From: Miltoncostaea marina
GTDB lineage: Bacteria; Actinomycetota; Thermoleophilia; Miltoncostaeales; Miltoncostaeaceae
Assembly: GCF_018141525.1 (NCBI RefSeq)
Contig: NZ_CP064655.1
Coordinates: 1,178,001 to 1,242,000, forward strand
Length of the DNA: 64,000 nucleotides
Reading direction: 5' to 3'
Shown: positions 5,575-36,326 of the stretch, piece after piece
Numbering within the stretch: position 1 is the first letter of the stretch
Layout: every line of letters starts with the position of its first letter
Position numbers and translations under genes: made by a program
The notes under the pieces: generated by a model
Database searches by the model: none
What the model was told of the DNA's origin: nothing
What the model saw: the letters and a program-made list of their open reading frames with translations, nothing else

Positions 5575-7023
5575 CTACTGCGGCAGGGCCACCACCAGCA
5601 GCTTCGGCTCGGTCATGCTCTCGACCGCGAAGCGCGGCCCCTCGCGGGTGTTGCCGCTGTCCTTCACGCCCCCGTAGGGCATCTGGTCCGCGCGGAAGGT
5701 GGGCGTCTCGTTGACGAGCACCCCGCCGAAGTGCAGCCGCCGCGCCCACACGAGGGCGGCGTCCGCGCGCGCGGTGAAGATGCCGGCCTGCAGGCCGAAC
5801 GGCGACGAGTTGGCGAGCTCCAGCGCCTGGTCGATGTCGCCGTAGGAGGCCAGGCCCACCACCGGCCCGAAGACCTCCTCGCAGGAGACCTTCATGCTGG
5901 GGTCGATGCCCTCGATGACGGTCGGCATCAGCAGGCGGTCGCGCACCTCGCCGCCGGTCAGCACCTCGCCCCCGGAGTCGCGCGCCTCGTCGATCCAGTC
6001 GACCACCCGCTGCCGGTTGTCGTCGTCGATCAGCGGGCCCACGTCGGTGCGCTCGTCCATGGGGTCGCCCACCACCAGGCGCCCGACGGCCGCGACGAAC
6101 AGGTCGCGGAAGCGGTCGATGGCGCGCTCCTGGACGTAGACCCGCTGCACCGAGATGCACGACTGGCCGGCGTGGGTGAACCCCGAGGCGGCGAGCTTGG
6201 TGGCGGCCAGCTCCAGGTCGGCGTCGGCCTCCACGATGACCGGCGTGGAGTTGCCGAGCTCCAGGGCCACCTCCTTGCGCGGCTGGCGTTGACGGATGTC
6301 CCAGCCCACCGGCGGGCTGCCGGTGAACGAGATCATCGGCACGTCGGGGTGGTCGACGAGCGCGTTGCCCACCGTGCCGCCGCCGCCGATCACCACCGAC
6401 AGGGCGCCGGGCGGCAGGCCCGCCTCGCCGAGGGTGCGCGCCAGCAGCAGCGCCGAGAGGGGGGTGGCCGAGGCGGGCTTCAGCACCACCGGGCAGCCGG
6501 CCGCGATCGCCGGCGCCACCTTGTGGGCCACCAGGTTGAGGGGGAAGTTGAAGGGCGAGATCGCGCCGACCACGCCGATCGGCTCGCGCACGATGACGCC
6601 GAGCTTGCCGGCGCCGGCGGCGCTCGCGTCCATGGGGACCATCTCGCCGGCCACCTTGCGCGCCTCGACGGCGGCGAAGGTGAGCGTGTCCACGCAGCGG
6701 GCCACCTCGGCGCGCGCCTGCTTGAGCGGCTTGCCGGCCTCCAGGCAGATCGTGCGCGCGAAGGCGTCGGCGCGCTCGGCCACCAGGCGGGCGGCCCGCT
6801 CGAGCACCTGGGCCCGCTCGGCCGCCGGCGGCGGCGGCAGGTGCTCCATGGCCGCGTCGACCGCCGCCGCGACGTCGTCCGGCCCGCCCACCGCCACCGT
6901 GGCGATCGTCTCGCCGCTGTACGGGTTGGTGACGGCGAGGTCCTCGTTGCGCTGGTCGAATGCCCCGTCGAGCAGCAGCCCGGTGGGCTGGGACGGGTCG
7001 AGTGCCGGGCTGGTGATCCCCAT
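5575..7023 (-). CDS. NAD(P)-dependent aldehyde dehydrogenase
   Basis: Soluble ALDH-superfamily enzyme oxidising an aldehyde to the acid. It is 482 residues from the ATG at 7021-7023. Conserved residues are Asn159 in SPFNFP, the general base Glu255 in LELG, and the nucleophile Cys289 in GQSCISV. The motif after Glu255 reads LELGNSTP rather than the usual LELGGNAP, and FTGSPPVGW replaces FTGSTxVG, as in divergent GapN/lactaldehyde-type branches. It is divergently transcribed from the acetolactate-synthase-like gene, with 90 bases between start codons that must hold both promoters. The substrate is unknown. Confidence 0.88.
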   Translation of the reverse strand: MGITSPALDPSQPTGLLLDGAFDQRNEDLAVTNPYSGETIATVAVGGPDDVAAAVDAAMEHLPPPPAAERAQVLERAARLVAERADAFARTICLEAGKPLKQARAEVARCVDTLTFAAVEARKVAGEMVPMDASAAGAGKLGVIVREPIGVVGAISPFNFPLNLVAHKVAPAIAAGCPVVLKPASATPLSALLLARTLGEAGLPPGALSVVIGGGGTVGNALVDHPDVPMISFTGSPPVGWDIRQRQPRKEVALELGNSTPVIVEADADLELAATKLAASGFTHAGQSCISVQRVYVQERAIDRFRDLFVAAVGRLVVGDPMDERTDVGPLIDDDNRQRVVDWIDEARDSGGEVLTGGEVRDRLLMPTVIEGIDPSMKVSCEEVFGPVVGLASYGDIDQALELANSSPFGLQAGIFTARADAALVWARRLHFGGVLVNETPTFRADQMPYGGVKDSGNTREGPRFAVESMTEPKLLVVALPQ

Positions 7024-7113
7024 GCGAACCCCGCTCCTGTCGGCGTCGGACGTTGAATACGATACCCAGGCGGGTACCCCCGGACGGCCGGTCGAAACGA
7101 GGGGGAGTCTCAC

Positions 7114-8748
7114 GTGCAGGCCGCCGAGCTGATGGTGCGCTGCCTGGAGGCCGAGGGTGTGGAGCGCATCTTCGCCATCCCGGGCGAGGAGACGCTCGAG
7201 ATCATCGACGCGCTCAGCCGGTCGCCGATCGACGTGGTCGTGGTGCGCCACGAGCAGGGGGCCGCCTTCATGGCCGACGTCCACGGCCGGCTCACCGGCC
7301 GGGCGGGCGTCTGCCTGGGCACGCTGGGCCCGGGCGCCACCAACCTCATCACGGGCGTCGGCGACGCGTACCTCGACTACGCCCCGATGGTCGCGATCAC
7401 CGGCCAGGTGAAGCTCGACCTGGTCCACAAGGAGAGCCACCAGTACGTCGACGTGGTGGACATGCTGCGGCCGGTCACGAAGTGGAACGCGCGCATCGAG
7501 CGCCCGGAGACCGTGCCCGAGGTCGTGCGCAAGGCCTTCAAGCTGGCCGAGGCGGAGCGCCCGGGGCCGACCCACCTCGAGCTGTCCGAGACGATCGCCG
7601 CGGCCGAGCTGCCCTCCTCCGCCCGCCCGCTGGCCCGCAGCGCCCCGGTGCCGAGCCGGCCCGACGACGCGGCGGTGCGCCAGGCGGCGGCGATCATCCG
7701 CGAGGCCCGCCGGCCCGTGGTGCTGACCGGCAACGGGGTCATCCGCGGCGGCGCCGCCGGCGCGCTGCGTGAGCTGTGCGCGCACGCCGGCATCCCCGCC
7801 TGCCCCACCTTCATGGGCAAGGGCGCGCTCGACGACCGCTCGCTGCTGTCGCTGCCCGCCGTGGGGCTGCAGGCGCGCGACTCGGTCACCGCCGGCCTGG
7901 ACGAGGCCGACGTCGTGATCTGCGCCGGCTACGACCTGGTGGAGTTCGGCCCCGCCGCCTGGAACCCCGACACGCTCAAGCGGATCATCCACGTCGACCG
8001 CCGTCCGGCCGAGGTGGACGGCCACTACATCCCCGAGGTCGAGATCGTGGCCGGCGTGGCCGACACGCTGCGCGCCCTGCGCGACGAGCTGCCCGCGCGC
8101 GACGAGCCGGCCTACGCCACACGCCTGCACGTGGCGGTGGCCACGGAGCTGCGCGCCACGCTGGAGCGGCCGGGGATCGTGACGCCCCAGGCGGCGATCG
8201 GCGCGATCCGGGCCGCCATGGAGCCCGAGGACATCCTCATCTCCGACGTGGGCGCCCACAAGCTGTGGCTCGGCCGGCTCTTCCCGGCCTACGAGCCGGG
8301 CACGGTGATCATCAGCAACGGCTTCGCCACGATGGGGGTCGGCCTTCCGGGGGCGATCGCGGCGGCGCTCGCCCTGCCGGAGCGGCGGGCCGTGACCGTG
8401 TCGGGCGACGGCGGCTTCCTCATGAACGTGCAGGAGATGGAGACCGCCGCGCGCCTGAGCCTGCCGGTGGTCGTGGTGGTGTGGGTCGACGGCCGCTACG
8501 GGGTGATCGGCTGGAAGCAGGAGCGCCGCTTCGGGCGCACGAGCGCGATCGACTTCGGCACGCCCCACTGGCCGAGCCTCGCCCGCGCCTTCGGCTGGGA
8601 GCACGAGGAGGCCACCGACGCGCCGGCCCTGACCGCGGCCATCCGGGCCGCGACGGCCCGCGGCGGCCCGTCGCTGGTGACCGTGCCGATCGACTACCGC
8701 CAGAACGTCCGCCTCGCCAACCTGGGCGAGCCGTCGCTGGGCGCATAG
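7114..8748 (+). CDS. Thiamine-diphosphate enzyme, acetolactate synthase large-subunit-like
   Basis: ThDP-dependent enzyme most like catabolic acetolactate synthase (two pyruvate to 2-acetolactate). It is 544 residues from GTG 7114, which follows GAGGGGGAG. It has three domains in the usual order: PYR with catalytic Glu47 in VRHEQGAA, a central domain, and PP with the ThDP/Mg motif starting SGDGGFLMN near residue 430. No small regulatory subunit (ilvN) or ilvC follows, which argues against the main branched-chain pathway. Other ThDP lyases cannot be ruled out. Confidence 0.8.
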   Translation: MQAAELMVRCLEAEGVERIFAIPGEETLEIIDALSRSPIDVVVVRHEQGAAFMADVHGRLTGRAGVCLGTLGPGATNLITGVGDAYLDYAPMVAITGQVKLDLVHKESHQYVDVVDMLRPVTKWNARIERPETVPEVVRKAFKLAEAERPGPTHLELSETIAAAELPSSARPLARSAPVPSRPDDAAVRQAAAIIREARRPVVLTGNGVIRGGAAGALRELCAHAGIPACPTFMGKGALDDRSLLSLPAVGLQARDSVTAGLDEADVVICAGYDLVEFGPAAWNPDTLKRIIHVDRRPAEVDGHYIPEVEIVAGVADTLRALRDELPARDEPAYATRLHVAVATELRATLERPGIVTPQAAIGAIRAAMEPEDILISDVGAHKLWLGRLFPAYEPGTVIISNGFATMGVGLPGAIAAALALPERRAVTVSGDGGFLMNVQEMETAARLSLPVVVVVWVDGRYGVIGWKQERRFGRTSAIDFGTPHWPSLARAFGWEHEEATDAPALTAAIRAATARGGPSLVTVPIDYRQNVRLANLGEPSLGA

Positions 8749-8781
8749 GCTCGCCCCACCGACCGCTGGAGGAGGGCGCCG

Positions 8782-9007
8782 ATGGACGACCCGACCGTCA
8801 CCGACCCCGACACGTACCGGGTGGTGTTCGAGAACCACCGCGTGCGGGTGCTGGAGTACCGCGACCGGCCGGGGGCGCGGACCCGGCCGCACGACCACCC
8901 GGACAGCGTGATGGCGACCCTCGCACGCGCTCGTCGTGGAGCTGTCGGGGGGCGCGGGGGCGGCGCCGCCGCCCGGCGGGGCGCTGGGCTCCGCCGCGGC
9001 CGGGTAG
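8782..9007 (+). pseudogene. Internally deleted cupin-like gene
   Basis: The first 49 codons (ATG 8782, good GGAGGAGG site) read like small cupin proteins: YRVVFENHRVRVLEYRD, then RPHDHPDSVMATL with the metal-binding HDH. Directly afterwards a different frame reads HALVVELSGG, which resembles the C-terminal strand of the same family, and stops at 9005-9007. The middle of the barrel is missing, so about 100 bases or more seem to have been lost and the frame shifted. Reading straight through gives an arginine/glycine-rich tail ending at 9054. It is probably non-functional. Confidence 0.55.
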
Positions 9008-9050
9008 CACCCGTGACGACACCGGACCGGAACGCTGGAGGGGGCGGACC

Positions 9051-9443
9051 ATGAGCCAGGCGAACCCGCAGGACGAGCACCTCGACTACCGCGCCACGGT
9101 GGCCAGGCTGGAGGAGCTGGTGGGCCGCGAGCTGCTGGTGGAGCTGCGCATCGGCGACCCGGGCGGGCCCTTCCGGGTGGCCGCCCGCGGCGTGCTCGAG
9201 GGGCACGCCGACGGCCAGGCGGAGCTGTCGGCCCGCCGCGGGCCGGGCGACGACGTGGCCAGCTTCATGCTCGCCTCGGGCGGGTTCTTCACCGTCTACG
9301 AGAAGCCGTTCCGGGAGGGGCGGTGGTGGGCCGGCCACGACGACGGCCGCGACCACCCCGACCAGCCGCACCTCAAGATCCTGTTCGACGACTCCGTGCT
9401 GCACGTGGCGGTCTACGGGCCGTCGCCCGGGCCGGCCGCCTAG
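9051..9443 (+). CDS. Conserved-looking hypothetical protein
   Basis: A 130-residue soluble protein starting at ATG 9051, preceded by GGAGGGGGCGG. It has a helical start (residues 8-25), then strand-rich segments such as LLVELRIGD and FRVAARGVLEGHADG, and an aromatic middle (FFTVYEKPF, RWWAGHDDG). I do not recognise a family or catalytic motif. Its stop codon overlaps the convergent alcohol dehydrogenase stop codon by two bases. Confidence 0.6.
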   Translation: MSQANPQDEHLDYRATVARLEELVGRELLVELRIGDPGGPFRVAARGVLEGHADGQAELSARRGPGDDVASFMLASGGFFTVYEKPFREGRWWAGHDDGRDHPDQPHLKILFDDSVLHVAVYGPSPGPAA

Positions 9444-10489
9444 GGCGTCGCCACCTCCACCAGCACCTTGAGGGCGCGGCGCTCGTCCATGGCCGCGTAG
9501 CCGGCCGGCACCTCCTCCAGCGGCACGCGCGTGTCGAGCACGGGGGAGGGGTCGAGCCGGCCGGCCAGCACGTCGGCGAGCAGCTCGGGGATGTACGCGC
9601 GCACCGGCGCCACCCCGCCCACCAGGCGCACGTTGGTGCCGTGCACCGGCATGAGGTCGACCGGCTCGGCCGGCACGCCCACGTGGCCCACCGCGCCGCC
9701 GGCGCGGGCCGCGCGGATGGCGGTGTCGAACGAGGCCGCCGTGCCGACGCACTCCACCACGTGGCGCGCCCCGCCGCCGGTCATCTCGCGCACCTGCTCC
9801 ACCGCCTCCCGGCCGCGCGCCGTGACCACGTCGGTCGCCCCGAAGCCCCGGGCGATCGCCAGGCGCTCCTCGTGGTGGCCGAGCGCGATGATGCGCGCCG
9901 CGCCCAGGCGCCGCGCCGCCAGCACCGCGCAGAGCCCCACCGCGCCGTCGCCCACCACGACCGCGGTCGCCCCGGGTCCCACGCCGGCCGACACGGCGCC
10001 GTGGTGGCCGGTGCCCATCACGTCGGTGAGCGTGGCGACCGCCGCGGCGAGGCGGGCGTCGCCCAGCTCGACCTCGTCGGGCAGCGGCACGAGGGTGCCG
10101 TCGGCGAGCGGCGCCCGCACGGCCTCGCCCTGGCCGCCGTCGTTGGCGAGCCCGCCCCAGTAGCCCCCGTGCACGCACGAGGTGTGGAGCCCCTCCTCGC
10201 AGAACTCGCAGGAGCCGTCGGAGAAGGCGAAGGGCGCGATCACCCGCTGCCCGGGGCGGATGGTGCGCACCTCGTCGCCGACCGCCTCGACCACGCCCAT
10301 GAACTCGTGGCCCGTCCGCCCGCCGGGCGGGCCGTAGATCGGGACCTGGCCGCGGTAGGGCCACAGGTCGCTGCCGCAGATGCAGGCGTGGGTCACGCGC
10401 ACGAGCGCGTCGGTGGGCTCGCGCAGCCCGGCGTCGGGGACGTCCTCGACCCGCATGTCGCGGGGTCCGCGGTAGACGGTGGCTCGCAT
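9440..10489 (-). CDS. Zinc-dependent alcohol dehydrogenase (MDR family)
   Basis: Medium-chain zinc dehydrogenase, 349 residues from the ATG at 10487-10489. The catalytic zinc ligands are visible in ACICGSD and GHEFMG, and the structural zinc cysteines cluster in SCEFCEEGLHTSC. The Rossmann motif is VVVGDGAVGLCA. An upstream in-frame ATG at 10522 would add 11 residues with no family similarity. This subfamily includes threonine-, sorbitol- and formaldehyde-type enzymes, so the substrate is left open. The gene is monocistronic. Confidence 0.88.
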   Translation of the reverse strand: MRATVYRGPRDMRVEDVPDAGLREPTDALVRVTHACICGSDLWPYRGQVPIYGPPGGRTGHEFMGVVEAVGDEVRTIRPGQRVIAPFAFSDGSCEFCEEGLHTSCVHGGYWGGLANDGGQGEAVRAPLADGTLVPLPDEVELGDARLAAAVATLTDVMGTGHHGAVSAGVGPGATAVVVGDGAVGLCAVLAARRLGAARIIALGHHEERLAIARGFGATDVVTARGREAVEQVREMTGGGARHVVECVGTAASFDTAIRAARAGGAVGHVGVPAEPVDLMPVHGTNVRLVGGVAPVRAYIPELLADVLAGRLDPSPVLDTRVPLEEVPAGYAAMDERRALKVLVEVATP

Positions 10490-25576: not shown

Positions 25577-27255
25577 CTAACCGGTGGCGCGCTCGGGGCG
25601 GAGGTGCCGCACGGCGTAGGCGGCGGCCTCGGCCCGGTTGCGCAGGCCGAGCTTCACGAGCACGTTGTGCACGTGGTGCTCGACCGTCTTGCGGGTGAGG
25701 AAGAGGCGCTCGGCGAGCTCGCGGTTCGAGCAGCCCTCGCCCAGCAGCTGGAGCACCTCCAGCTCGCGTCGCGTCAGGACGTCCGTCCCGCGGGGCCCCG
25801 TCGCCCCCGGCCGCGCGCCCAGCGCGCGCAGCTGCGCCCGGGCGGCGTCGGCCAGGCGGGCGGCGCCGAGCCCGTCGAACGCCGCCGCCGCCCCCGCGCC
25901 TCCGCGATCGCCGCCTCCGGCGACGCGGCTGCGAGCGCGTCCGCCAGCAGGAGGTGGGCCCGGCCGGCCTCCAGCGGCATCTCCAGGCGGTGGAAGGCCT
26001 CGAGCGCCCGCTCCAGGTGCGCGGCCGCGGCCGGCCTGCCTGCGGCGGCGGCGATGCGCCCGAGCGCCAGCTCGGCCCGGGCGACGACGACCTCGCAGCC
26101 GGCATCGGCGCCGAGCGCCAGCAACGCACGCGCGCGCCGCGCCGCCGCGCGGGCGTCGCCCAGCGCCGTCTCAGCCTCGGCCAGCAGCGCCACGAGCGCG
26201 GCGGCCTCCAGGCAGCGGTCGCCCGTCGCGCGCAGTCGACGGCGAAGCGCGGCGGCCGCGCCGGCGGCGTCGCCGCGAGCGAGCAGCACGCCGGCCAGCG
26301 CCGCCGCCGACGTCGGGTGGTCCTCGACGCCGGCCAGCAGTCCGGCCGCCTCGTTCACCCGGCCCTGCGCCAGCCGCAGCTCGGCCAGGCGCGCGAGGGC
26401 CTCGGCGAAGAGCGCCGGCTCCGCCGCGCGGGCGCTCCGCAACGCCTCCCCGATCGCCTCCTCGGCGTCCTTCCAGCGCCCCGTGGCGACCAGAACGCAG
26501 CCGTAGCTGAGGCGGCACGTCGTGTGGACGTGGAAGGACCCGCTGCGGCGGGCGAAGGCCTCCGCCATCCGGATCCACTGGGCCGCCCGGGCGAACTGGG
26601 CGGCCGCCGCGCACGCCGTGACCATGCAGCAGCTCGCGAACACCGCCGTGTCCAGCCGCCGCCCCTCGCCGGCGAGCGAGGCCGCCATCGCCTCGTCGAG
26701 CAGGGCGAAGCCCTCCGCGACCCGCCCGGCGTCCACGAGCAGCGCGCCGAGCGCGCTCATCGCGCAGAGCTCCAGATCCGGGTCCGGCGGGCTCACCGCC
26801 GAGCCCGTCCGCGCGATCGCCAGCGCCTCCTCCGCCAGCGCCCGGCCGCCCGCCAGGTCCCCGGCCTCCCCGCGGTCGTGCGCGCGCGCCAGCGTCGCCC
26901 AGCCGCGGAACGGCTCGAGCCGCTCGGCGTCCACCAGCCGCTCCAGGCGGGCCAGCCACCCCCGTGCGGCCACGGCGTTGCCGAAGCAGAGGCGCATCAG
27001 GAAGTAGAGCCCGAGCGCGGCCTCCGCCGCGACGGCCGGCTGTGCGGCCGATCGCGCCGACCGGTAGGCGCGCCGGTAGCGCTCGAGCGCGCCCTCGCTG
27101 TCGCCGAGCCACAGGAGGGCGTCCGCGAGCCCGAGCTCGGCGGGCGCGCCGCCCTCGTCGAGCGCCCCGGCGAAGGCGTCGCGGGCCGCAGGCCAGTCGC
27201 CCGCCTGCGCGGCGGCCGCCCCGGCCGCCAGCGCGGCCTCGACGCTCCCGGCCAT
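25577..27255 (-). pseudogene. LuxR-family regulator with TPR-like repeats, frameshifted
   Basis: From the ATG at 27255 about 450 codons encode alanine-rich helical hairpins typical of TPR signal-sensing regions. Near 25891-25895 the frame breaks inside a run of five C (G on the coding strand). One added base restores [20 protein letters not shown] and then a complete LuxR helix-turn-helix ([33 protein letters not shown]) ending at 25577. Total length is one base short of 560 codons. Without a correction the protein ends at 25774 with no DNA-binding domain. Sequence error or recent inactivation are both possible. Confidence 0.75.
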
Positions 27256-27806: not shown

Positions 27807-30260
27807 GTGAGCGACCACGCCATCGCCGCCCGGGGCGCCGCGGTCCGGGCGCTCCCCGCCGAGACCACGCCGCTCGTCGGTCGCGAGACGGAGGTGGAGG
27901 CGGCGGTCGCGCTGCTCGATCGTCCGGATGTCCGGCTGCTGACCCTGACCGGGCCCGGCGGAGTGGGCAAGTCGCGGCTCGCGCTGCGGGTGGCGACGCT
28001 CGCGCGGGAGCGCTTCGCCGACGGCATCGCGCTCGTGCCGCTCGACGCGGTCGATGACGGCGCGCTCGTGGTCCAGGCCATCGTGCTCGCCCTCGGCCTC
28101 GCGGACGCCGGCGAGCTGACCTCGCCGGAGCGGCTGGAGGCGCATCTGCGCGACCGCGAGCTGCTGCTGCTGCTCGACGGCTTCGAGCACCTGCTGGACG
28201 CGGCGCCCGTCCTCTCGCGGCTGCTGGCCGCGTGCCCGGCCCTGAATCTCCTGGTGACGAGCCGGGCGGTGCTGCGCCTGTCGGGCGAGCACGAGTTCCG
28301 GGTGCCCCCGCTGGCGCTTCCGGAGCGCGGGCCCGACGCGGACCCGGACCGGATCGCCGGCTCGCCGTCCGTCGCGCTCTTCACCCAGCGCGCCGCGGCC
28401 GCGGCGTCGGGCGTCCGCCTGACCGCCGACGACGTGCCGGCCGTCGCCGAGATCTGCTGGCGCCTGGACGGGCTGCCCCTGGCGATCGAGCTGGCGGCGG
28501 CGCGCGTCAAGCTGCTCGGCGTCGAGGGCGTGTTGGGCCGGCTCGCGGAGCGGCTCGACCTCCTCACCGGCGGCCCGCGCGACGCACCGGCCCGACAGCG
28601 CACGCTGCGGGACGCGATCCGGTGGAGCGACGCCCTCCTCGAGCCGGACGAGCGCCGGCTGCTGCGGCTGCTGTCGGTGTTCGCCGGCGGATGCGACCTG
28701 ACCGCGGCCGCCGACGTGGCGAGGCGGGTGGATCCCCGGGCGCCCGACGTGCTCGAGACCGTCGCGTCCCTGCTCGACAAGAGCATGGTGGTGCGCTTCG
28801 AGGGGCCGGCCGGTGAGGCCCGCATCGGGATGCTCGAGACGATCCGCGAGTACGCGCGCGCCGCCCTGGCGGCCGATGGCGGCGCCGATGACGCCGGGCG
28901 GGCCCACGCCGATCACCACCTCGCGCTCGCGCGCGAGGCCGAGGACGCGCTTCGCGGCCCCGACCAGCGCGCGTGGCTGGATCGCATCGAGGCGGAGCTG
29001 CCGAACCTGCGCACCGCCCTGCGCTGGCTGCTGGACGCGGCGCGGGCCGAGGACGCGCTCGTGCTCGCCGCATCGCTCGAGCGCTTCTGGTACGTGCGCG
29101 GCGACCTGATGGAGGGCGTCCGGTGGCTGGAGCGCGCGCTCGGGCGGGTGGCCGCCGGCACGCCGCTGCGCGCCCGCGGCCTGACCGCCGCGGCGACGCT
29201 CGCCCACTACGGGGGCGACCTCGACACCGCCGCCGCGCTCGGCGAGGAGGCCCTCGCGGTGTCCACGACGCTCGGGGACCGGGGCAGCGCGGCCCACGCG
29301 CTCACCGCGCTCGGCCTCGTCGCCCGCGCCCGCGGCCGCTACGACGAGGCGCGGACGCGCTACGACCAGTCGACGAGGATCTTCCGTGAGCTCGGCGACC
29401 GGCGCGGCCTCGCCGAGGCCGTCGGCCGCACGGCGACCGCGGCGCTCCACCAGGGCGACTGCACGACCCTTCTCGACAGCGGCCTCGAGGCGACGGCCCT
29501 GTACCGCGAGCAGGGCGACCTCGACGGGATCGCGTACGCGGTCAACTCCGTGGCCCTCGGCATGCTCCACCTGGGACGGCTCGAGGAGGCCGAGCCCCGC
29601 TTCCGCGAGGCGCTGGCGGCGGCGCGCGGCGTCGGGAACCGGCGATACACCAGCCGCATCCTGGTCGGGATGGGGACGCTCGCCGCCGCGCGATCCGACT
29701 GGGCGGCGGCGCGCGCGCAGTTCGAGGAGGCCTCCGCCATCGCCGGCGAGTACGGGGACCGGTGGCTGGTCGCGACGACCTCCCTGCCGAACCTCGCGCG
29801 CGTGCACCTGGCCGAGGGCCGGGCCGAGGTCGCGACAGTCGTCCTGGGCGCGGCCGAGGCCGGGCGGGACGCGATCGGGGTGCCGATCCCGGCGCGCGAG
29901 GCGGCCCAGCACGACGAGATGGTGGCGGAGGCCCGGACAGCGCTCGGGGAGGCGGCCTTCGCGCGGGCCTGGGCCGCCGGACGCGGCATGGCCCTCGACG
30001 AGGCGCTCTCCACCGCCCGTCGCGCGGTGGAGCCGCCGCCGTCGGACGCCGCGCCGCCGGGCGCCGCCGGCCCGCTCACCCGCCGGGAGGCCGAGGTGCT
30101 GCGCCTGGTGGCCGGCGGGCTCACCGACGCCCAGGTCGCCGACGCCCTCGTCCTCAGCCGGCGCACCGTCCACGCGCACCTGCGCTCGATCTACCGCAAG
30201 CTCGACGTCGGGTCGCGCAGCGCCGCCACCCGCTGGGCGCTGGAGCAGGGCCTCACCTAG
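27807..30260 (+). CDS. Large ATP-binding LuxR-family transcriptional regulator
   Basis: An 817-residue signal-transduction ATPase-type regulator starting at GTG 27807. A P-loop [10 protein letters not shown] (near 51-60) and a Walker-B-like [12 protein letters not shown] (near 114-125) form an NB-ARC/AfsR-like ATPase. A winged-helix region follows, then TPR-like helical repeats (about 350-700), and a C-terminal LuxR helix-turn-helix ([33 protein letters not shown]). Such proteins bind inducers or partner proteins through the repeats. It lies directly upstream, same strand, of the PEP-synthase-like pair and is the obvious candidate regulator for it. Confidence 0.85.
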
Positions 30261-30314
30261 GCGCCCCGCGTCGGCCGCGGCGGCGGTCGGCATCGGCACC
30301 GCTCGTCACGGCGT

Positions 30315-30338
30315 TTCGGCAACGCGGTTCGGCAACGC
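30315..30338 (+). repeat. Tandem direct repeat upstream of the PEP-utilising operon
   Basis: Two perfect 11-base copies of TTCGGCAACGC start 13 bases apart, about 100 bases before the operon start codon. The second copy also forms a short inverted repeat (CGGCA / TGCCG). The position in a 180-base promoter region suggests binding sites for a regulator, possibly the adjacent LuxR-type protein. Confidence 0.45.
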
Positions 30339-30440
30339 TGCCGATGCGGCCCGGCCGGCTCGCGGCGGATCCTGCCCCCACGGCGGAGGGCCACCGGCAC
30401 CGGGCCTGGCGGGATCCCCGCCCGACGAGAGGACGGGATC

Positions 30441-32087
30441 ATGATCGAGACCGACACCACACCGACCCCCCTGCGCCTGGAGCCCCCCGGTCCGGGATCG
30501 TGGCTGCTGGACGCCGTCCATGCCCCGCGGCCCTACTCGCGCTTCGGTACCGAGATCCACCCCGGGGCCCTGGCCGAGGGGTTCGCCGTCATGGGGCGCC
30601 GCTACGGCCTGCTCCTCGACGTCCTCGACTGGCGGATGGTGCAGGGGTTCGCCTACTTCGCGCCGCGTCCCGTGCTGGACGAGGCCGAGCTGCCCCGGCG
30701 GTTCGCGGCGGCCGCGGAGGCCGTCGCCCGGCGCGTCTGGCGCGAGGACGTCGAGCGCTGGGAGCGGTGGGCGAAGCCGGCCTCCGTGCGGGCGCACCTC
30801 GCCCTCCAGCGCGTCGATCCCGCGCCGCTGTCGACGGACGGGCTGCTGGCGCACCTCCAGCGCGCCCGCGAGCACCAGCGAGCGATGATCGTCCAGCACC
30901 ACGTCTTCAACGGGGCGGCCCTCATCCCCGTGGGCGACTTCCTCGCGCACGCGGCGGAATGGACCGGCCTCCCGCCCGCCCGCGTCCTGGCGCTCGTGCG
31001 CGGCGCGGCGCCCGAGTCCGCCGGCAGCTCCCACGAGCTCGACCGGCTCGTGGCGGCCCTCGCCGCCGACGGCCGGGCGCGGGCGGCGCTGGCGAGCGAC
31101 GAGGAGCCGGGCGCCCTCCTGGCCCGGCTGCGCGCATGGCCGGGCGGCGTCGGGCACGCCGCGACGGCATACCTCGACCTGGTCGGCTACCGGCTCGTGG
31201 ACAGCCTCGACATCGGCGACCGCTACGCCCTCGAGGTGCCCGAGGTGATCGTGGGGCGCCTGCGCGTCGCGGTGGCCGGCGGGAGGCCGGTGGGCGGCCC
31301 CTCGCAGGAGGAGGTCGCCGGAGTCCGGGACCTCGTCCCGCCCTCCTGTCGGGACGAATTCGACGACCTCCTCGCCGAGGCCCGGCTCACGTACCGGGTG
31401 CGCGACGAGCGCGGCAACTTCGGCGAGGTCTGGGCCGGGGGCATCACCCGGCGGGTCGTCCTGGCCGCGGGCGAGCGCCTGGTGCGGGCCGGCGTCCTGG
31501 ACGAGCCGACCCAGCTCGCGGAGGCCGGGTACGAGGAGATGCGCGACCTGATCTCCGGCCGCGGCGGCCCCACCGCCGACGAGCTGGCGGCGCGCGCCCG
31601 CTTCCGGGCGACGCACCGCGCCGCGGACCTGCCGCCGTTCCTCGGCGATCCGCCCCCTCCGCCGCCGCCGCTCGACCGCGTGCCCGCGGCCGCCGCGCGC
31701 ATGATGCGGGCCCTCGACGCCTCCATCGCGGCGCTGTTCATGCCGTCGGACGCCGAGAGCGAGGCCCGGGTCGTGCGGGGCACCGGCGCCAGCCCCGGCG
31801 TGGCCGTCGGCGTCGCCCGCGTGCTGTCCGGGCCCGCCGAGCTCGGCCGGCTGCGCACCGGTGACATCCTCGTGACCGGGTCGACGACCGAGTCGTTCAA
31901 CATCGCCCTCCCCCTGGTCGGCGCGATCGTGACCGACGCCGGCGGCATCCTCTCCCACGCGGCCATCGTCAGCCGCGAGTACGGCATCCCCGGGGTCGTC
32001 GGCACGCGCGACGCGACGGTGCTCATCCCCGACGGCGCGCGCGTGCGCGTGGACGGCGCCGCCGGAGAGGTCGAGGTGCTCTCGTGA
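30441..32087 (+). CDS. PEP-utilising enzyme, phosphohistidine (swivelling) domain subunit
   Basis: A 548-residue protein. Its C-terminal 90 residues are the mobile PEP-utilisers domain with the phospho-acceptor His506 in GGILSHAAIVSREYGIPGV. The preceding 400 residues are mostly helical and resemble the substrate-side region of PEP-synthase-like phosphotransferases rather than a PEP/pyruvate TIM barrel. The ATP-grasp domain needed to phosphorylate His506 is absent but is encoded by the next gene, which overlaps by GTGA. The pair therefore resembles a split PEP-synthase-like kinase (compare phenylphosphate synthase subunits or rifampin phosphotransferase). Substrate unknown. Confidence 0.78.
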   Translation: MIETDTTPTPLRLEPPGPGSWLLDAVHAPRPYSRFGTEIHPGALAEGFAVMGRRYGLLLDVLDWRMVQGFAYFAPRPVLDEAELPRRFAAAAEAVARRVWREDVERWERWAKPASVRAHLALQRVDPAPLSTDGLLAHLQRAREHQRAMIVQHHVFNGAALIPVGDFLAHAAEWTGLPPARVLALVRGAAPESAGSSHELDRLVAALAADGRARAALASDEEPGALLARLRAWPGGVGHAATAYLDLVGYRLVDSLDIGDRYALEVPEVIVGRLRVAVAGGRPVGGPSQEEVAGVRDLVPPSCRDEFDDLLAEARLTYRVRDERGNFGEVWAGGITRRVVLAAGERLVRAGVLDEPTQLAEAGYEEMRDLISGRGGPTADELAARARFRATHRAADLPPFLGDPPPPPPPLDRVPAAAARMMRALDASIAALFMPSDAESEARVVRGTGASPGVAVGVARVLSGPAELGRLRTGDILVTGSTTESFNIALPLVGAIVTDAGGILSHAAIVSREYGIPGVVGTRDATVLIPDGARVRVDGAAGEVEVLS

Positions 32088-32911
32088 CCTGGGCACTGCT
32101 CGCCGACGCCGCCGAGGCCACGCGCTTCGGCGGCAAGGCCGCCGGCCTCGCGCGGGCGATCCGCGCGGGGCTGCCGGTGCCCGCCGGGGTCGCGGTCGCC
32201 TGGCCGGCCGCCGACGCCGTGGGCGCCGGGGACCCCGCCGCCGAGGCGGAGCTACGATCCCTGCCGCTGCTGCGCGAGGCACGCGACGGCCTGGCCGTCC
32301 GCTCCTCGGCGGTCGGCGAGGACGGCGGGCGCACGAGCTTCGCCGGTCAGCACGAGACGTTGCTCAACGTGACCTCCGACAGCATCGTCGAGGCGGTCCG
32401 GCAGGTGTGGCGCTCGGGGCGCTCGGACGCCGCCCGGGCCTACCGGCGCCGGCTGGGCGTCGGGGGACCGGCCCGCATGGGCGTCGTCGTCCAGCAGCTC
32501 GTGCGCGCCGACGTCGCAGGCGTCCTCTTCACCCGCGATCCGATCGACGGCTCCGACGAGCTGCTCGTCGAGTCGAGCTGGGGGTTCGGCGAGGTGGTGG
32601 TGAACGGGCGGGTGATCCCCGACCGGCACCGCCTCAGCTCCTCGGGCACCGTGCTGGAGGCGGCCGCGGGGCGCAAGGACGTCGCCCTGCGCGCGACCCC
32701 CGGCGGGGGGCGCGCCGAGGTCGCCGTGCACGGGGGCGCCGTGGGCGCCCTCTGCCTGCAGGAGTCGCACCTCGCAGAGCTCCACGAGCTCGCCGTGCGC
32801 TGCGAGGCGGCCTTCGGCCCGGGCCAGGACATCGAGTGGGCCCTCGCGGACGGCGCCGTCCACCTGCTCCAGGTCCGCCCCCTCACGACCGTCGGGGGCG
32901 CGCGCCGCTGA
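32084..32911 (+). CDS. PEP synthase/PPDK-type ATP-grasp subunit
   Basis: A 275-residue protein equal to the N-terminal nucleotide-binding domain of PEP synthase. Conserved blocks are FGGKAAGLARAI (catalytic Lys near 18), LAVRSSAVGEDG, SFAGQHETLLNV, GVLFTRDPI, SSWGFGE and the C-terminal DIEWALADGAVHLLQVRP. It starts at GTG 32084 in the stop codon of the His-domain gene, so a 1:1 complex is likely. It would transfer a phosphoryl group from ATP to His506 of the partner. It is shorter than usual (about 330 residues). Confidence 0.82.
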   Translation: MTWALLADAAEATRFGGKAAGLARAIRAGLPVPAGVAVAWPAADAVGAGDPAAEAELRSLPLLREARDGLAVRSSAVGEDGGRTSFAGQHETLLNVTSDSIVEAVRQVWRSGRSDAARAYRRRLGVGGPARMGVVVQQLVRADVAGVLFTRDPIDGSDELLVESSWGFGEVVVNGRVIPDRHRLSSSGTVLEAAAGRKDVALRATPGGGRAEVAVHGGAVGALCLQESHLAELHELAVRCEAAFGPGQDIEWALADGAVHLLQVRPLTTVGGARR

Positions 32912-32962
32912 CCGGCCGTCCGGACGCCCGCGAGGCGGTCGTCGCCGTGCGCCCGGACAGCC

Positions 32963-32990
32963 GGATCGCCGAGCAGCGGCTCGGCGATCC
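32963..32990 (+). terminator. Terminator of the PEP-utilising operon
   Basis: An 11-bp perfect inverted repeat (GGATCGCCGAG / CTCGGCGATCC) with a 6-base loop lies 51 bases after the stop codon. Confidence 0.75.
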
Positions 32991-33575
32991 CGGCGAGACG
33001 AGCAGCGAGGGCGTCGTCATCGATCCGTGATCGCCGGCGCCGGGGGGTCTCGCCGGCCGCCGAGGCCTCCGGTGTGTCCGCCGCGCGATCCGGCGATCGG
33101 CGGCGACGCCCGAGTGATCCCCGAGGCGGCGACGCCCCGAAGTGATGCCCGAGGCGCCGGTGACCTGGGGGCGTCTGCGGGCCGGACTCCGGCGAGACGG
33201 CTGCGCCGCCCGCGCCCGCGATCGAACCAGCCGCAGGCGGCCGAGCGTGTCATCGGCCGCGAGAACATCGAGCGGGGTCGCCGCGGCCGACGGCCTCCGC
33301 AGCGACCCGATGCGCGCGGCGGCCGGGGCCGGCATCCGCCGCGGTCCGATCGCCGCGACTCGACCGGGGCGATCTCGGCGCCGCCGGCCGACGCGCCGGG
33401 GTGGGTCAGGAGCGGCCGCACGTCGCGCCGGCCATCGCGGCGCACCTCGCCGAGGCGGTCGCCCGCGGGCGGGGTGTCCGCCGAGGGGTCCCGTCCGTCC
33501 GGCACGGACGGGTGGGCCGATTGCGTCACCAGCCGGCGCGTCCCCTCGCCGCCGACCGGCGCGCTGCGCGTCGCG
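32991..33575. other. Gene-free gap between convergent genes
   Basis: About 585 bases between the ends of the PEP-utilising operon (+) and the histidine kinase gene (-). The open frames here are arginine/proline-rich on both strands and show no coding bias or family similarity. The only structure I see is the imperfect tandem repeat at 33100-33153. A gap this long at a convergent junction is unusual in this compact window and may be the remains of a lost gene. Confidence 0.5.
33100..33153. repeat. Imperfect tandem repeat, two units of 26-28 bases
   Basis: Each unit begins GCGGCGACGCCC and ends GTGATNCCCGAG; the second unit is two bases longer. It lies in the gene-free gap. Slipped-strand duplication is the simplest explanation. 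Confidence 0.55.
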
Positions 33576-34958
33576 TCATCCCTTCGGCGCGCGCGCCGTC
33601 GGGGCGGCCTGCGTGCGCCCGGAGGCGGCCCCGGAGGCCGCCGGCAGGCGCAGCACGAAGCAGGTGCCCCCGGAGGGCTCGAGCTCGAGGGAGCCGCCCT
33701 GCGCCTCGGCGAGCTCCCTGGCGATCGCCAACCCGAGGCCCTCGCCGCCGCTGGTCCAGGCGGCCTCCGAGCCGCGGTGGAAGCGCTCGAAGATCCGGTC
33801 GGGGTCGAGCGCCGCCGGGTCGCCGTCGTCGTGGACCCGCATGGTCGCCCAGCCGTCGTCGAGCGCCGTCCCGAGGCGCACGGCGCCTGCCGGCGGCGCG
33901 TACTTGAGGGCGTTGGAGAGCAGGTTGACGGCGATCTGGCGCACCGCGTCGGGGTCGCCCGCCGCGCGCGCCGGGCGCGCGTCGACCTCGAGCGCCAGCC
34001 CGCGGATCTCGAAGGCGGCCGCCAGGCTCGCGTGCACCTGCGCGGCCACCTCGTCGAGCGCCACGACCCCGACCCGCAGCGGCGACGGCTGCGCCTCCGA
34101 CTCGGCGAGGCGCTCGATCTGGCCGATCAGGCGGCTGAGGCGCAGGGTCTCGGTGTGGAGCGCCGCGAGCCCGTCGGCGTCGAACGGCACCACGCCGTCC
34201 TGCATCGCCTCGATGCGGCCCTGGAGCAGCATGAGCGGCGTGCGCAGCTCGTGCGAGAGGTCGGCGGCCAGCTGGCGGCGGGCGCGTCGCTGGCGCTCGA
34301 GGTCGGCGGAGAGGCCGTCGAGCGCCTCCGCCAGCTCGCGCACCTCGGCCGACGCGCCGGGGAGCTCGGGCGTGCGCCCCCCGGCGGCCAGCCCGCGGGC
34401 GGCCACCGTCAGCCGCCGGAGCGGCCGCGACAGGCGGCCGGCCACCACGAGGCCTGCGCCGATCGCCACGACGGCGGCGATGGCCGCGGCGAGCAGGTGG
34501 CCCTGGTCGAGCTCCTGCCGCAGCTCCTCGTCGGCGGGCGTGTCGCCGTCCGCACCGAGGGCGTACAGCTCCAGCGTCGCCACCCGGCCGCCGCGCGGCC
34601 CGTGCACCGGCAGCTCGGACACGCGCCTGAAGTCGAGGCCGTCGCGGTCCAGCTTGGTGGTGTCGATCAGCACCCGCCCGCCCTCGCGCAGCCGGTAGTC
34701 GTAGCCGGTCAGCACCAACTCGTGGGACAGGATGTCGAGCGCGTCGGCGCTCCAGCGCCCGCCCGCGGTGGCGTAGGCGGTCTCGGCGAGGGCCACCGCG
34801 TCGCGGCCCGCCTGGTCGCTGCGCCGGGCGAGGTAGTCGTCGAACGTGCGGTGGAGGCCCCAGCCGGTCAGGAGGGCGGCCACCAGCACCGCGAGGGCGG
34901 CGATGCCGACGAAGGCGGCCACCAGGCGCGCGCGCAGGCCGAGGCGGCCGACGCTCAC
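33576..34958 (-). CDS. Membrane sensor histidine kinase (HAMP-HisKA)
   Basis: A 460-residue kinase from GTG 34958. It has an N-terminal transmembrane helix (residues 10-33), an extracytoplasmic sensor of about 115 residues, and a second helix (about 155-172). A HAMP linker follows, then the phospho-acceptor box DLSHELRTPL near residue 235. The ATPase domain shows NLLSNALKYAP and GGEGLGLAIARELAEAQGG. Its start overlaps the OmpR-type regulator stop codon (GTGA). It sits next to DUF305 and copper-pump genes, so metal or envelope stress is a plausible signal. Confidence 0.9.
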   Translation of the reverse strand: MSVGRLGLRARLVAAFVGIAALAVLVAALLTGWGLHRTFDDYLARRSDQAGRDAVALAETAYATAGGRWSADALDILSHELVLTGYDYRLREGGRVLIDTTKLDRDGLDFRRVSELPVHGPRGGRVATLELYALGADGDTPADEELRQELDQGHLLAAAIAAVVAIGAGLVVAGRLSRPLRRLTVAARGLAAGGRTPELPGASAEVRELAEALDGLSADLERQRRARRQLAADLSHELRTPLMLLQGRIEAMQDGVVPFDADGLAALHTETLRLSRLIGQIERLAESEAQPSPLRVGVVALDEVAAQVHASLAAAFEIRGLALEVDARPARAAGDPDAVRQIAVNLLSNALKYAPPAGAVRLGTALDDGWATMRVHDDGDPAALDPDRIFERFHRGSEAAWTSGGEGLGLAIARELAEAQGGSLELEPSGGTCFVLRLPAASGAASGRTQAAPTARAPKG

Positions 34959-35653
34959 ACGGACTCCTCCAGCCGGTAGCCCACCCCGTAGACGGTCGCC
35001 ACGTAGCCCGCGGCGCCCGGCAGCGCCTCGTCCATCTTCTTGCGCAGGCGCATCACGTGGACGTCGACGGTGCGCTCGATGCCCTCGACGTCGGGTCCCT
35101 GCACCGCCTGCAGGAGGTCGTAGCGCGAGAAGACCCGCCGCGGCTGGCGCGCGAGCGCCGCCAGCAGGCGGAACTCGGCCACCGTGAGCGCCAGCGCGGC
35201 GCCGTTGAGGCGGGCCTCGTGGGCGGCGAGGTCGACCTCGAGCCTGCCGCCGTCGATCACGAGCAGGTCCGCCGCGGGCTGGCCCCGGCCGCCGGAGCGG
35301 CGCAGGATGGCGCGCACCCGAGCGACGAGCTCTCGCGGCGAGAACGGCTTCACCAGGTAGTCGTCGGCCCCGAGGGCGAGGCCGCGCAGGCGGTCGGCCT
35401 CGGCCGACTTGGCGGTCAGCATCAGGATCGGCACGGCCGAGTGGCGGCGCAGGCTGGCGCAGACCTCCTCGCCGGCGATGTCGGGCAGCATGAGGTCGAG
35501 CACGACGAGGTCGGCCGGCTGGGTGGCGAGGGCGTCGAGCGCACGGCGGCCGGTGCGCGCGGTGCGCACGGTGAAGCCGTCGCGGCGCAGGTACGCCGAG
35601 GCGAGCTCGATGATGCCCGGCTCGTCGTCGACGACGAGGATCGAGGGGCTCAT
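34955..35653 (-). CDS. OmpR-family response regulator
   Basis: A 232-residue regulator from the ATG at 35651-35653. The receiver domain has acidic pocket VVDDEPG, phosphorylation Asp in LVVLDLMLPD and Lys in DDYLVKPFSP. A winged-helix DNA-binding domain follows (LTVAEFRLLAALA, RTVDVHVMRLRKKM, TVYGVGYRLE). It is coupled to the following kinase gene and separated by 25 bases from the DUF305 gene upstream on the same strand, so all three may be one operon. Confidence 0.92.
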   Translation of the reverse strand: MSPSILVVDDEPGIIELASAYLRRDGFTVRTARTGRRALDALATQPADLVVLDLMLPDIAGEEVCASLRRHSAVPILMLTAKSAEADRLRGLALGADDYLVKPFSPRELVARVRAILRRSGGRGQPAADLLVIDGGRLEVDLAAHEARLNGAALALTVAEFRLLAALARQPRRVFSRYDLLQAVQGPDVEGIERTVDVHVMRLRKKMDEALPGAAGYVATVYGVGYRLEESV

Positions 35654-35678
35654 CGGCTCGCCCGGTGGATCGGCCCGC

Positions 35679-36326
35679 TCATCCGAGCGGCGGGAACCAC
35701 GTCTGCCGCCAGCGCTGCATCTGCCCGATCTCCTCCGCCTGGGCGGCGATGATCTCATGCGCCATCCGCTCGAGCTCGCCGCGCGGGCCGCCGCGGAGGG
35801 CCGCGTCGGCCATCATCAGCGCGCTCGCGTGGTGCGGGATCATCGCCGCCAGGAACGCGCGGTCGAACTCGCGGGCAGGCGTCGCCTCGAGGCCCGACAT
35901 GTCCATGCTCGCGTGCGGGCCGGAGGCGTCCTCGGTGAGCGGCTCGCCGAACCACTGCTCGCTCCAGGTCCGCATCCGCTCGATCTCCTCCTCCTGCGAG
36001 GCGACGATCCGCTCGGCCAGGCGGCGCACCGCCGGACGCTCGGCGCGCTCCAGGGCGAGCTCGGCCATCGCCACCGCCGAGCGGTGGTGCGGCACCATCA
36101 TCTGCAGGAACGCGCGCTCGCCCAGCCGACCGCCGCCGGCCATGCCCGAGCCCATCCCGCCGTCGGGCCACGAGCCCATCGGCGCCTCCATCCACGCGCC
36201 GCCGCCCGCGTGCGGGCCGTCGCCGGGCCCGTGGTCGTCGCCGGCGAGCGCCATGCCGATCCCGAGCCCGGCGGCCAGCGCGACCACGCCCGCCACCCCG
36301 AGGATCACCCACAGCCTGCTGGTCAT
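35679..36326 (-). CDS. DUF305 protein with duplicated domain
   Basis: A 215-residue exported or membrane-anchored protein from the ATG at 36324-36326. After an N-terminal hydrophobic anchor (residues 5-28) and a Gly/Met/His-rich linker there are two DUF305 repeats: FLQMMVPHHRSAV and FLAAMIPHHASAL, each followed by a QMQRW/RMRTW-type segment. Met/His-rich motifs suggest copper or silver binding outside the cytoplasm. The gene precedes the OmpR-type two-component genes and is divergent from the lipoprotein gene at 36447. Confidence 0.85.
   Translation of the reverse strand: MTSRLWVILGVAGVVALAAGLGIGMALAGDDHGPGDGPHAGGGAWMEAPMGSWPDGGMGSGMAGGGRLGERAFLQMMVPHHRSAVAMAELALERAERPAVRRLAERIVASQEEEIERMRTWSEQWFGEPLTEDASGPHASMDMSGLEATPAREFDRAFLAAMIPHHASALMMADAALRGGPRGELERMAHEIIAAQAEEIGQMQRWRQTWFPPLG

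What the first reader, a model, noticed from the sequence alone, without database searches (positions are those of the whole stretch)
30441..32911. Two-gene split PEP-synthase-like phosphotransferase of unknown substrate
The phosphohistidine domain (His506) and the ATP-grasp domain, normally one polypeptide, are encoded by overlapping genes in reversed order. The first subunit's 400-residue N-terminal part is not a pyruvate/PEP barrel. Known relatives with related logic are phenylphosphate synthase and rifampin phosphotransferase. With a dedicated regulator upstream, this could be a small-molecule or antibiotic kinase.
Basis: partly seen in the sequence, partly recalled or inferred. Interest (0 to 1): 0.65.

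Follow-up and report, generated by a model that had tools for sequence, protein, structure and literature searches.

The report
Two-gene small-molecule kinase, substrate unknown
This gene pair very probably makes a two-part enzyme that moves phosphate from ATP, through a histidine, onto an unknown small molecule; it belongs to an apparently undescribed family found in at least nine bacterial phyla, whose relatives often carry a drug-efflux-like pump or a cyclic-nucleotide sensor beside or within the pair.

Summary
ORF 30441-32087 (H, 548 aa: substrate domain plus phosphohistidine swivel, His506) overlaps ORF 32084-32911 (I, 275 aa: ATP-grasp) by 4 bp. The split is not new in kind: phenylphosphate synthase (PpsAB), CreHI and HpeHI share it (HpeHI characterised in 2025). 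The H N-terminal region is not a PEP/pyruvate barrel: its AlphaFold model (pLDDT 93.7) matches only rifampin phosphotransferase over its length, and its profile aligns with PpsA/CreH over 512 columns. But H falls outside the PpsA/CreH clade, meets no curated cut-off, and has an RDERG signature where phenol kinases have VENH. Its family (37-55% identical, nine phyla) keeps H-I pairs with correlated distances (r=0.90). Conserved partners are a DHA2-efflux-like MFS transporter (27 loci), a cyclic-nucleotide-binding subunit, separate or fused to I (31 loci), or TetR (19). No conserved catabolic genes were seen. The upstream LuxR regulator is not conserved with the pair, so 'dedicated' is unsupported. 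The window copy lacks the cNMP subunit present in seven of nine class relatives examined. Mechanism: ATP to phosphohistidine to small molecule (likely, by homology); role: detoxification or resistance (tentative).

The parts
30441..32087 (+). H subunit, 548 aa: substrate-binding plus swivel phosphohistidine protein
   Evidence: Pfam PEP-utilizers over cut-off; AlphaFold pLDDT 93.7; full-length Foldseek match only to rifampin phosphotransferase
30441..31739 (+). H residues 1-433: mostly helical substrate-binding domain, homologous to PpsA/CreH and to the RIF-binding domain of RPH
   Evidence: no Pfam PEP/pyruvate barrel; profile match to RPH 509-746, i-E about 3e-5; hhalign to PpsA/CreH over 512 columns
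31401..31415 (+). RDERG signature (residues 321-325), lying where RPH has its catalytic R-E..K block and phenol kinases have VENH
   Evidence: R321-R324 invariant in the 46 rows of A4
31770..32084 (+). H residues 444-548: swivel phosphohistidine domain
31956..31958 (+). catalytic His506 codon (CAC), preceded by Ser505, with Leu504 at -2
   Evidence: invariant in 46 homologues
32084..32087 (+). 4-bp GTGA stop/start overlap of H and I
   Evidence: same overlap possible in 64 of 82 homologous loci
32084..32911 (+). I subunit, 275 aa: ATP-grasp (PPDK_N type)
   Evidence: Pfam E 8e-56; AlphaFold pLDDT 93.8; Foldseek best RPH and 9GOJ = HpeI
27807..30260 (+). LuxR-type regulator, 817 aa (STAND-like AAA, TPR, GerE HTH), 180 bp upstream on the same strand; link to the pair unproven
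32912..33575 (.). no third same-strand gene called here: the MFS or cNMP gene of relatives is absent; next called gene is an antisense histidine kinase (33576-34958)

Best explanation
H and I are the two subunits of a two-component small-molecule dikinase. I binds ATP and presents its beta-phosphate to His506 of H; the swivel domain carries the phosphate to a small molecule bound in the helical N-terminal domain of H, giving AMP, phosphate and a phosphorylated product. These steps are inferred from homology to HpeHI, PpsAB and RPH; none was assayed here. The pair belongs to a family separate from the phenol kinases and from RPH. The substrate is unknown; the neighbours of relatives (DHA2-efflux-like MFS, TetR, cNMP sensor; no conserved catabolic genes) suggest a toxic or foreign compound that is phosphorylated for detoxification. 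My estimates: dikinase mechanism 0.9; non-pyruvate small-molecule acceptor 0.85; detoxification or resistance role 0.4. The confidence given is for the mechanism and family placement only.
For: Domains and catalytic residues intact and conserved. I model closest to the ATP-grasp of RPH and to HpeI 9GOJ. H model: only RPH structures match over the length (about 600 columns, E 1e-18); PPDK and EI mainly over the swivel. hhalign H family vs PpsA/CreH: probability 100, E 5e-40, 512 columns. H/I pairing and correlated distances across 74 loci. HpeHI, CreHI and PpsAB need both components, and HpeHI needs its His (PMC12167813). Neighbours: of 45 genes following I, 21 are MFS_1 and 13 cNMP_binding; 11 of 41 upstream genes are TetR_N. 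The 13 MFS proteins read singly (12 from H-family loci, one beside the L036 paralogue) all have TIGR00711 DHA2 efflux as best NCBIfam model. The second I-H pair in the same genome is also followed by an MFS gene.
Against: No substrate or activity evidence. The window copy has neither MFS, TetR nor cNMP gene beside it, so the role is inferred from relatives. Only one MFS read singly (L136, 245 bits) passes the TIGR00711 cut-off of 230.2. Some H relatives (L043-L046, L169, L170) show no I in the stretch held. TM-score to RPH is only about 0.6 over the whole chain.
Confidence: 0.8

Rival explanations
1. A catabolic phenol-type kinase like HpeHI, CreHI or PpsAB that traps and activates an aromatic growth substrate.
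For: Same fold, same two-component form, H-before-I order as PpsAB and HpeHI; profile homology over nearly the full length.
Against: Separate clade (SH-aLRT 99-100); NCBIfam PRK08296 scores 88-127 bits against cut-offs 578-730, while the PpsA and CreH controls score 1160-1300; VENH motif replaced by RDERG; no carboxylase or other catabolic genes conserved near the family.
Confidence: 0.2
2. A signal-controlled phosphotransferase: the kinase is switched by a cyclic nucleotide in relatives and serves a physiological metabolite rather than a toxin.
For: 31 loci carry a cNMP-binding domain fused to I or encoded next to it; all 30 distinct copies checked keep an FGE..AL..R.AT phosphate-binding cassette; 3 of 41 upstream genes are nucleotide cyclase/AAA proteins.
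Against: The window copy and the MFS and TetR groups lack the domain; no homologue of it was found in this genome (no positive control); the link of cNMP to kinase activity is untested.
Confidence: 0.25
3. An ordinary PEP synthase or pyruvate phosphate dikinase broken into two genes.
For: ATP-grasp and swivel domains are shared with those enzymes.
Against: No PEP/pyruvate barrel; all PEP-synthase models far below cut-off; Foldseek matches to PPDK cover mainly the swivel; the regulatory Thr two residues before His is Leu504; an 819-aa frame elsewhere in the genome holds both domains and is the likely real PEP synthase/PPDK.
Confidence: 0.02

Closest known systems
HpeHI / CreHI / PpsAB two-component phenolic dikinases
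   Same: Substrate plus swivel domain on one protein, ATP-grasp on another; phosphohistidine; Ser before His as in PpsA and CreH; profile homology over 512 columns. Phenylphosphate synthase also has a third, stimulating subunit (PMC6114531); the third gene of the Azoarcus pps locus is a CBS protein, a possible parallel to the cNMP subunit of relatives here.
   Different: Separate clade, 24% identical in the profile alignment; RDERG instead of VENH; H 548 vs about 610 aa, I 275 vs about 375 aa; no carboxylase or aromatic pathway genes.
Rifampin phosphotransferase (RPH)
   Same: Only solved structure matching H over its length; same three domain types; Arg-Glu of the catalytic block kept in modified form.
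   Different: RPH is a single chain with the ATP-grasp first; NF041857 scores 89 and 159 bits against a cut-off of 999; about 18% identical over H; block-9 Lys not conserved in the alignment.
PEP synthase / PPDK
   Same: ATP-grasp and swivel domains.
   Different: No PEP/pyruvate barrel, no regulatory Thr, all model scores far below cut-off.

Membership tests
Two-component small-molecule dikinases (broad sense: HpeHI, CreHI, PpsAB) | Substrate-plus-swivel subunit and separate ATP-grasp subunit encoded together | tested here: met
Two-component small-molecule dikinases (broad sense: HpeHI, CreHI, PpsAB) | T/SxxGGxxxH motif with catalytic His near the C terminus | tested here: met
   T498..H506, invariant in A4
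Two-component small-molecule dikinases (broad sense: HpeHI, CreHI, PpsAB) | N-terminal domain of the RPH/HpeH type | tested here: met
Two-component small-molecule dikinases (broad sense: HpeHI, CreHI, PpsAB) | ATP to AMP plus phosphorylated small molecule, both subunits required | not testable with these tools
   needs assay
Phenolic kinases PpsA/CreH/HpeH (PRK08296 group) | Scores over a curated PRK08296 cut-off | tested here: not met
   88-127 bits vs 578-730; PpsA and CreH controls pass
Phenolic kinases PpsA/CreH/HpeH (PRK08296 group) | Branches with PpsA and CreH | tested here: not met
   separate clades, SH-aLRT 99-100; quick tree, midpoint root, long branches flagged
Rifampin phosphotransferase | NF041857 cut-off 999 bits on a single chain | tested here: not met
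   89.3 (H) and 159.1 (I) bits on two chains
Rifampin phosphotransferase | Phosphorylates rifampin | not testable with these tools
   needs assay
PEP synthase / PPDK | C-terminal PEP/pyruvate barrel | tested here: not met
   absent in Pfam and in the Foldseek matches
PEP synthase / PPDK | Regulatory Thr two residues before the catalytic His | tested here: not met
   Leu504
Known anti-phage defence systems (PADLOC) | Model match of H or I | tested here: not met
   no family for H or I

The most novel reading that the evidence does not exclude
The pair represents an undescribed, widely spread family of two-component small-molecule kinases that detoxify a still unknown compound class, and in one large branch the ATP-grasp subunit is switched by a cyclic nucleotide: a cNMP-gated dikinase.
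Probability: 0.3. Interest if true: 0.75.

Novelty: new variant of a known kind. Interest (0 to 1): 0.5.

Why it matters
RPH is the known case in which this chemistry inactivates an antibiotic, and phenol kinases are the known two-component case. A third, widespread family next to efflux-like pumps and TetR regulators is a concrete place to look for a new compound-modifying (possibly resistance) enzyme, and its cNMP-fused branch would be a new way of gating such a kinase. I found no description of it in the open-access papers searched, which is a limited library.

Tried and rejected
Plain PEP synthase: rejected. Dedicated LuxR regulator: not conserved with the pair; elsewhere in the genome nearly all matches are to its HTH end. 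cNMP subunit elsewhere in this genome: no match, no positive control. Promoter and terminator scan of 30200-33100: nothing, and the expected count is near zero. PADLOC: nothing for H or I. Foreign composition: GC and GC3 of H and I are close to those of the neighbours, so no compositional sign of recent transfer. Laying the whole genome in Python was not available. Orthologue in the same family: none in the 36 same-genus or same-family genomes searched. Hydropathy count of MFS helices was too crude to use. Three scans failed on wrong frames and were repeated with corrected coordinates or dropped (a paper look-up).

Full report
Observation. H carries the PEP-utilizers swivel domain at 472-542, I the PPDK_N ATP-grasp domain. 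His506 sits in T-D-A-G-G-I-L-S-H.

What the N-terminal part of H is. Pfam finds nothing there over cut-off. A profile of 46 homologues matches the rifampin-binding region of RPH (residues 509-746) at i-E about 3e-5, and aligns with PpsA/CreH over 512 columns at probability 100. The AlphaFold model (pLDDT 93.7) is mainly helical in that part; in the PDB only RPH entries match over the length, while PPDK and enzyme I match mainly over the swivel. So it is a substrate domain of the RPH/HpeH type, not a pyruvate barrel. I folds with pLDDT 93.8 and resembles the ATP-grasp of RPH and HpeI, 9GOJ.

Known relatives. HpeHI was described in 2025 as a two-component dikinase; CreHI and PpsAB are of the same kind (PMC12167813). 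The reference loci I used are a PpsA locus on Azoarcus plasmid pAZKH beside phenylphosphate carboxylase genes and two Rhodococcus plasmid loci which I take, by gene content and, for one of them (L149), a PRK08296.1-2 score over its cut-off, to be cre-type. The window H is not one of them: all PRK08296 scores are far under cut-off, the tree separates it, and RDERG replaces VENH. RDERG-like motifs occur in all family rows except L136 and L121, are missing in L043-L046, PpsA, CreH and the paralogues, and are present in the single-chain L012. The tree was a quick search with midpoint root and some long branches.

The family. A scan of 84,980 species' contigs kept 80 loci (133 relatives) 37-55% identical, in Actinomycetota, Chloroflexota, Pseudomonadota, Cyanobacteriota, Myxococcota, Acidobacteriota, Planctomycetota, Verrucomicrobiota and candidate division FCPU426 by record title, many of them metagenome bins. 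I follows H in nearly all. Of 82 loci with both on one strand, 64 allow the 4-bp overlap. H and I distances correlate at 0.90 over 74 loci against at most 0.13 in 1000 permutations.

Conserved neighbours. All-against-all comparison of neighbouring ORFs gave three partner types. By Pfam, of 45 genes following I, 21 are MFS_1 and 13 cNMP_binding; of 41 upstream genes 11 are TetR_N. Another 14 distinct loci have the cNMP domain fused to I. Counting by locus: 27 MFS, 31 cNMP, 19 TetR, needing only 4 label changes on the tree; the labels rest on ORF similarity clusters, and the counts include near-copies. All 30 distinct cNMP copies checked keep the FGE..AL..R.AT cassette. The MFS proteins were scanned as a set (21 matched TIGR00711). 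Thirteen were read singly: 12 from H-family loci (L144 and L118; L067; L095, L116, L120, L121, L124, L136, L138, L142 and L126) and the one beside the L036 paralogue. Each has TIGR00711 DHA2 efflux as best model, but only L136 exceeds its cut-off. The other nine of the 21 were not read singly.

The window copy. Phylum Actinomycetota and class Thermoleophilia are inferred from contigs shared with named records: a 'same phylum' genome is Streptomyces NBC_00249, and several 'same class' contigs have the lengths of Thermoleophilia and Solirubrobacterales records. No orthologue was found in 36 same-genus or same-family genomes, and 12 of 399 class genomes, counting this one, pass E 1e-45. Of nine class loci fetched, seven have H-I-cNMP and two (L169, L170, short stretches) show H without I. 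The window has no third gene, and its genome gave no match to the cNMP subunit. Its nearest tree neighbours are two alphaproteobacterial bins with MFS (SH-aLRT 97). GC and GC3 of the pair are close to the neighbours, so transfer, if any, is not recent by composition. The LuxR protein lies 180 bp upstream, but was not found beside the pair elsewhere.

Mechanism and role. By homology: ATP on I, phosphohistidine on H, transfer to a small molecule. That is well supported but not assayed. The role is open. DHA2-like pumps, TetR and the absence of conserved catabolic genes favour detoxification; cNMP sensors point to control by a signal. Phenylphosphate synthase has a third subunit that stimulates it, of unknown function (PMC6114531), and the third gene of the Azoarcus pps locus is a CBS protein; the cNMP subunit may be a parallel. 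The same genome holds a second pair of another branch, in order I-H, followed by an MFS gene.

Limits. Gene calls around loci come from a simple codon-usage script. Counts by locus include near-copies (Variovorax, Streptomyces). The literature search covers open-access papers only.

Noticed in passing
L036:6257-9978 (G000:C1 about 886256-889977): Second split pair in the same genome, order I (6257-7207) then H (7155-8783), followed by an MFS gene (8815-9978) and a DegT-type aminotransferase ORF; a related pair is in G001 (L020).
   Followed up: partly
L037:1854-6578 (G000:C1 near 909853-914577): 1574-aa protein with PPDK_N at 1129-1420 and PEP-utilizers at 1472-1554; the first 1100 residues have no Pfam match at E 0.001.
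   Followed up: no
L043, L044, L045, L046, L169, L170: H relatives with no I homologue in the short stretch held; the partner may lie elsewhere or be missing.
   Followed up: no
L012:1495-4065 and L047:1492-4665: Single-chain relatives with the ATP-grasp first, as in RPH; they branch next to the window family in the quick tree.
   Followed up: partly
L013:1489-3357: PpsA-like H (48% to Azoarcus PpsA) in a genome of the window's own family: a probable phenol-type kinase.
   Followed up: no
L089:7127-9946, L101:7139-9916: Cyanobacterial 925-939 aa protein with a C-terminal cNMP domain just upstream of H-I-cNMP.
   Followed up: no
window 33576-36326: Minus-strand histidine kinase, response-regulator-like ORF and DUF305 protein downstream of the pair.
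   Followed up: no
window 25774-27255: Minus-strand 493-aa ORF with a weak MalT-like TPR match, upstream of the LuxR gene.
   Followed up: no
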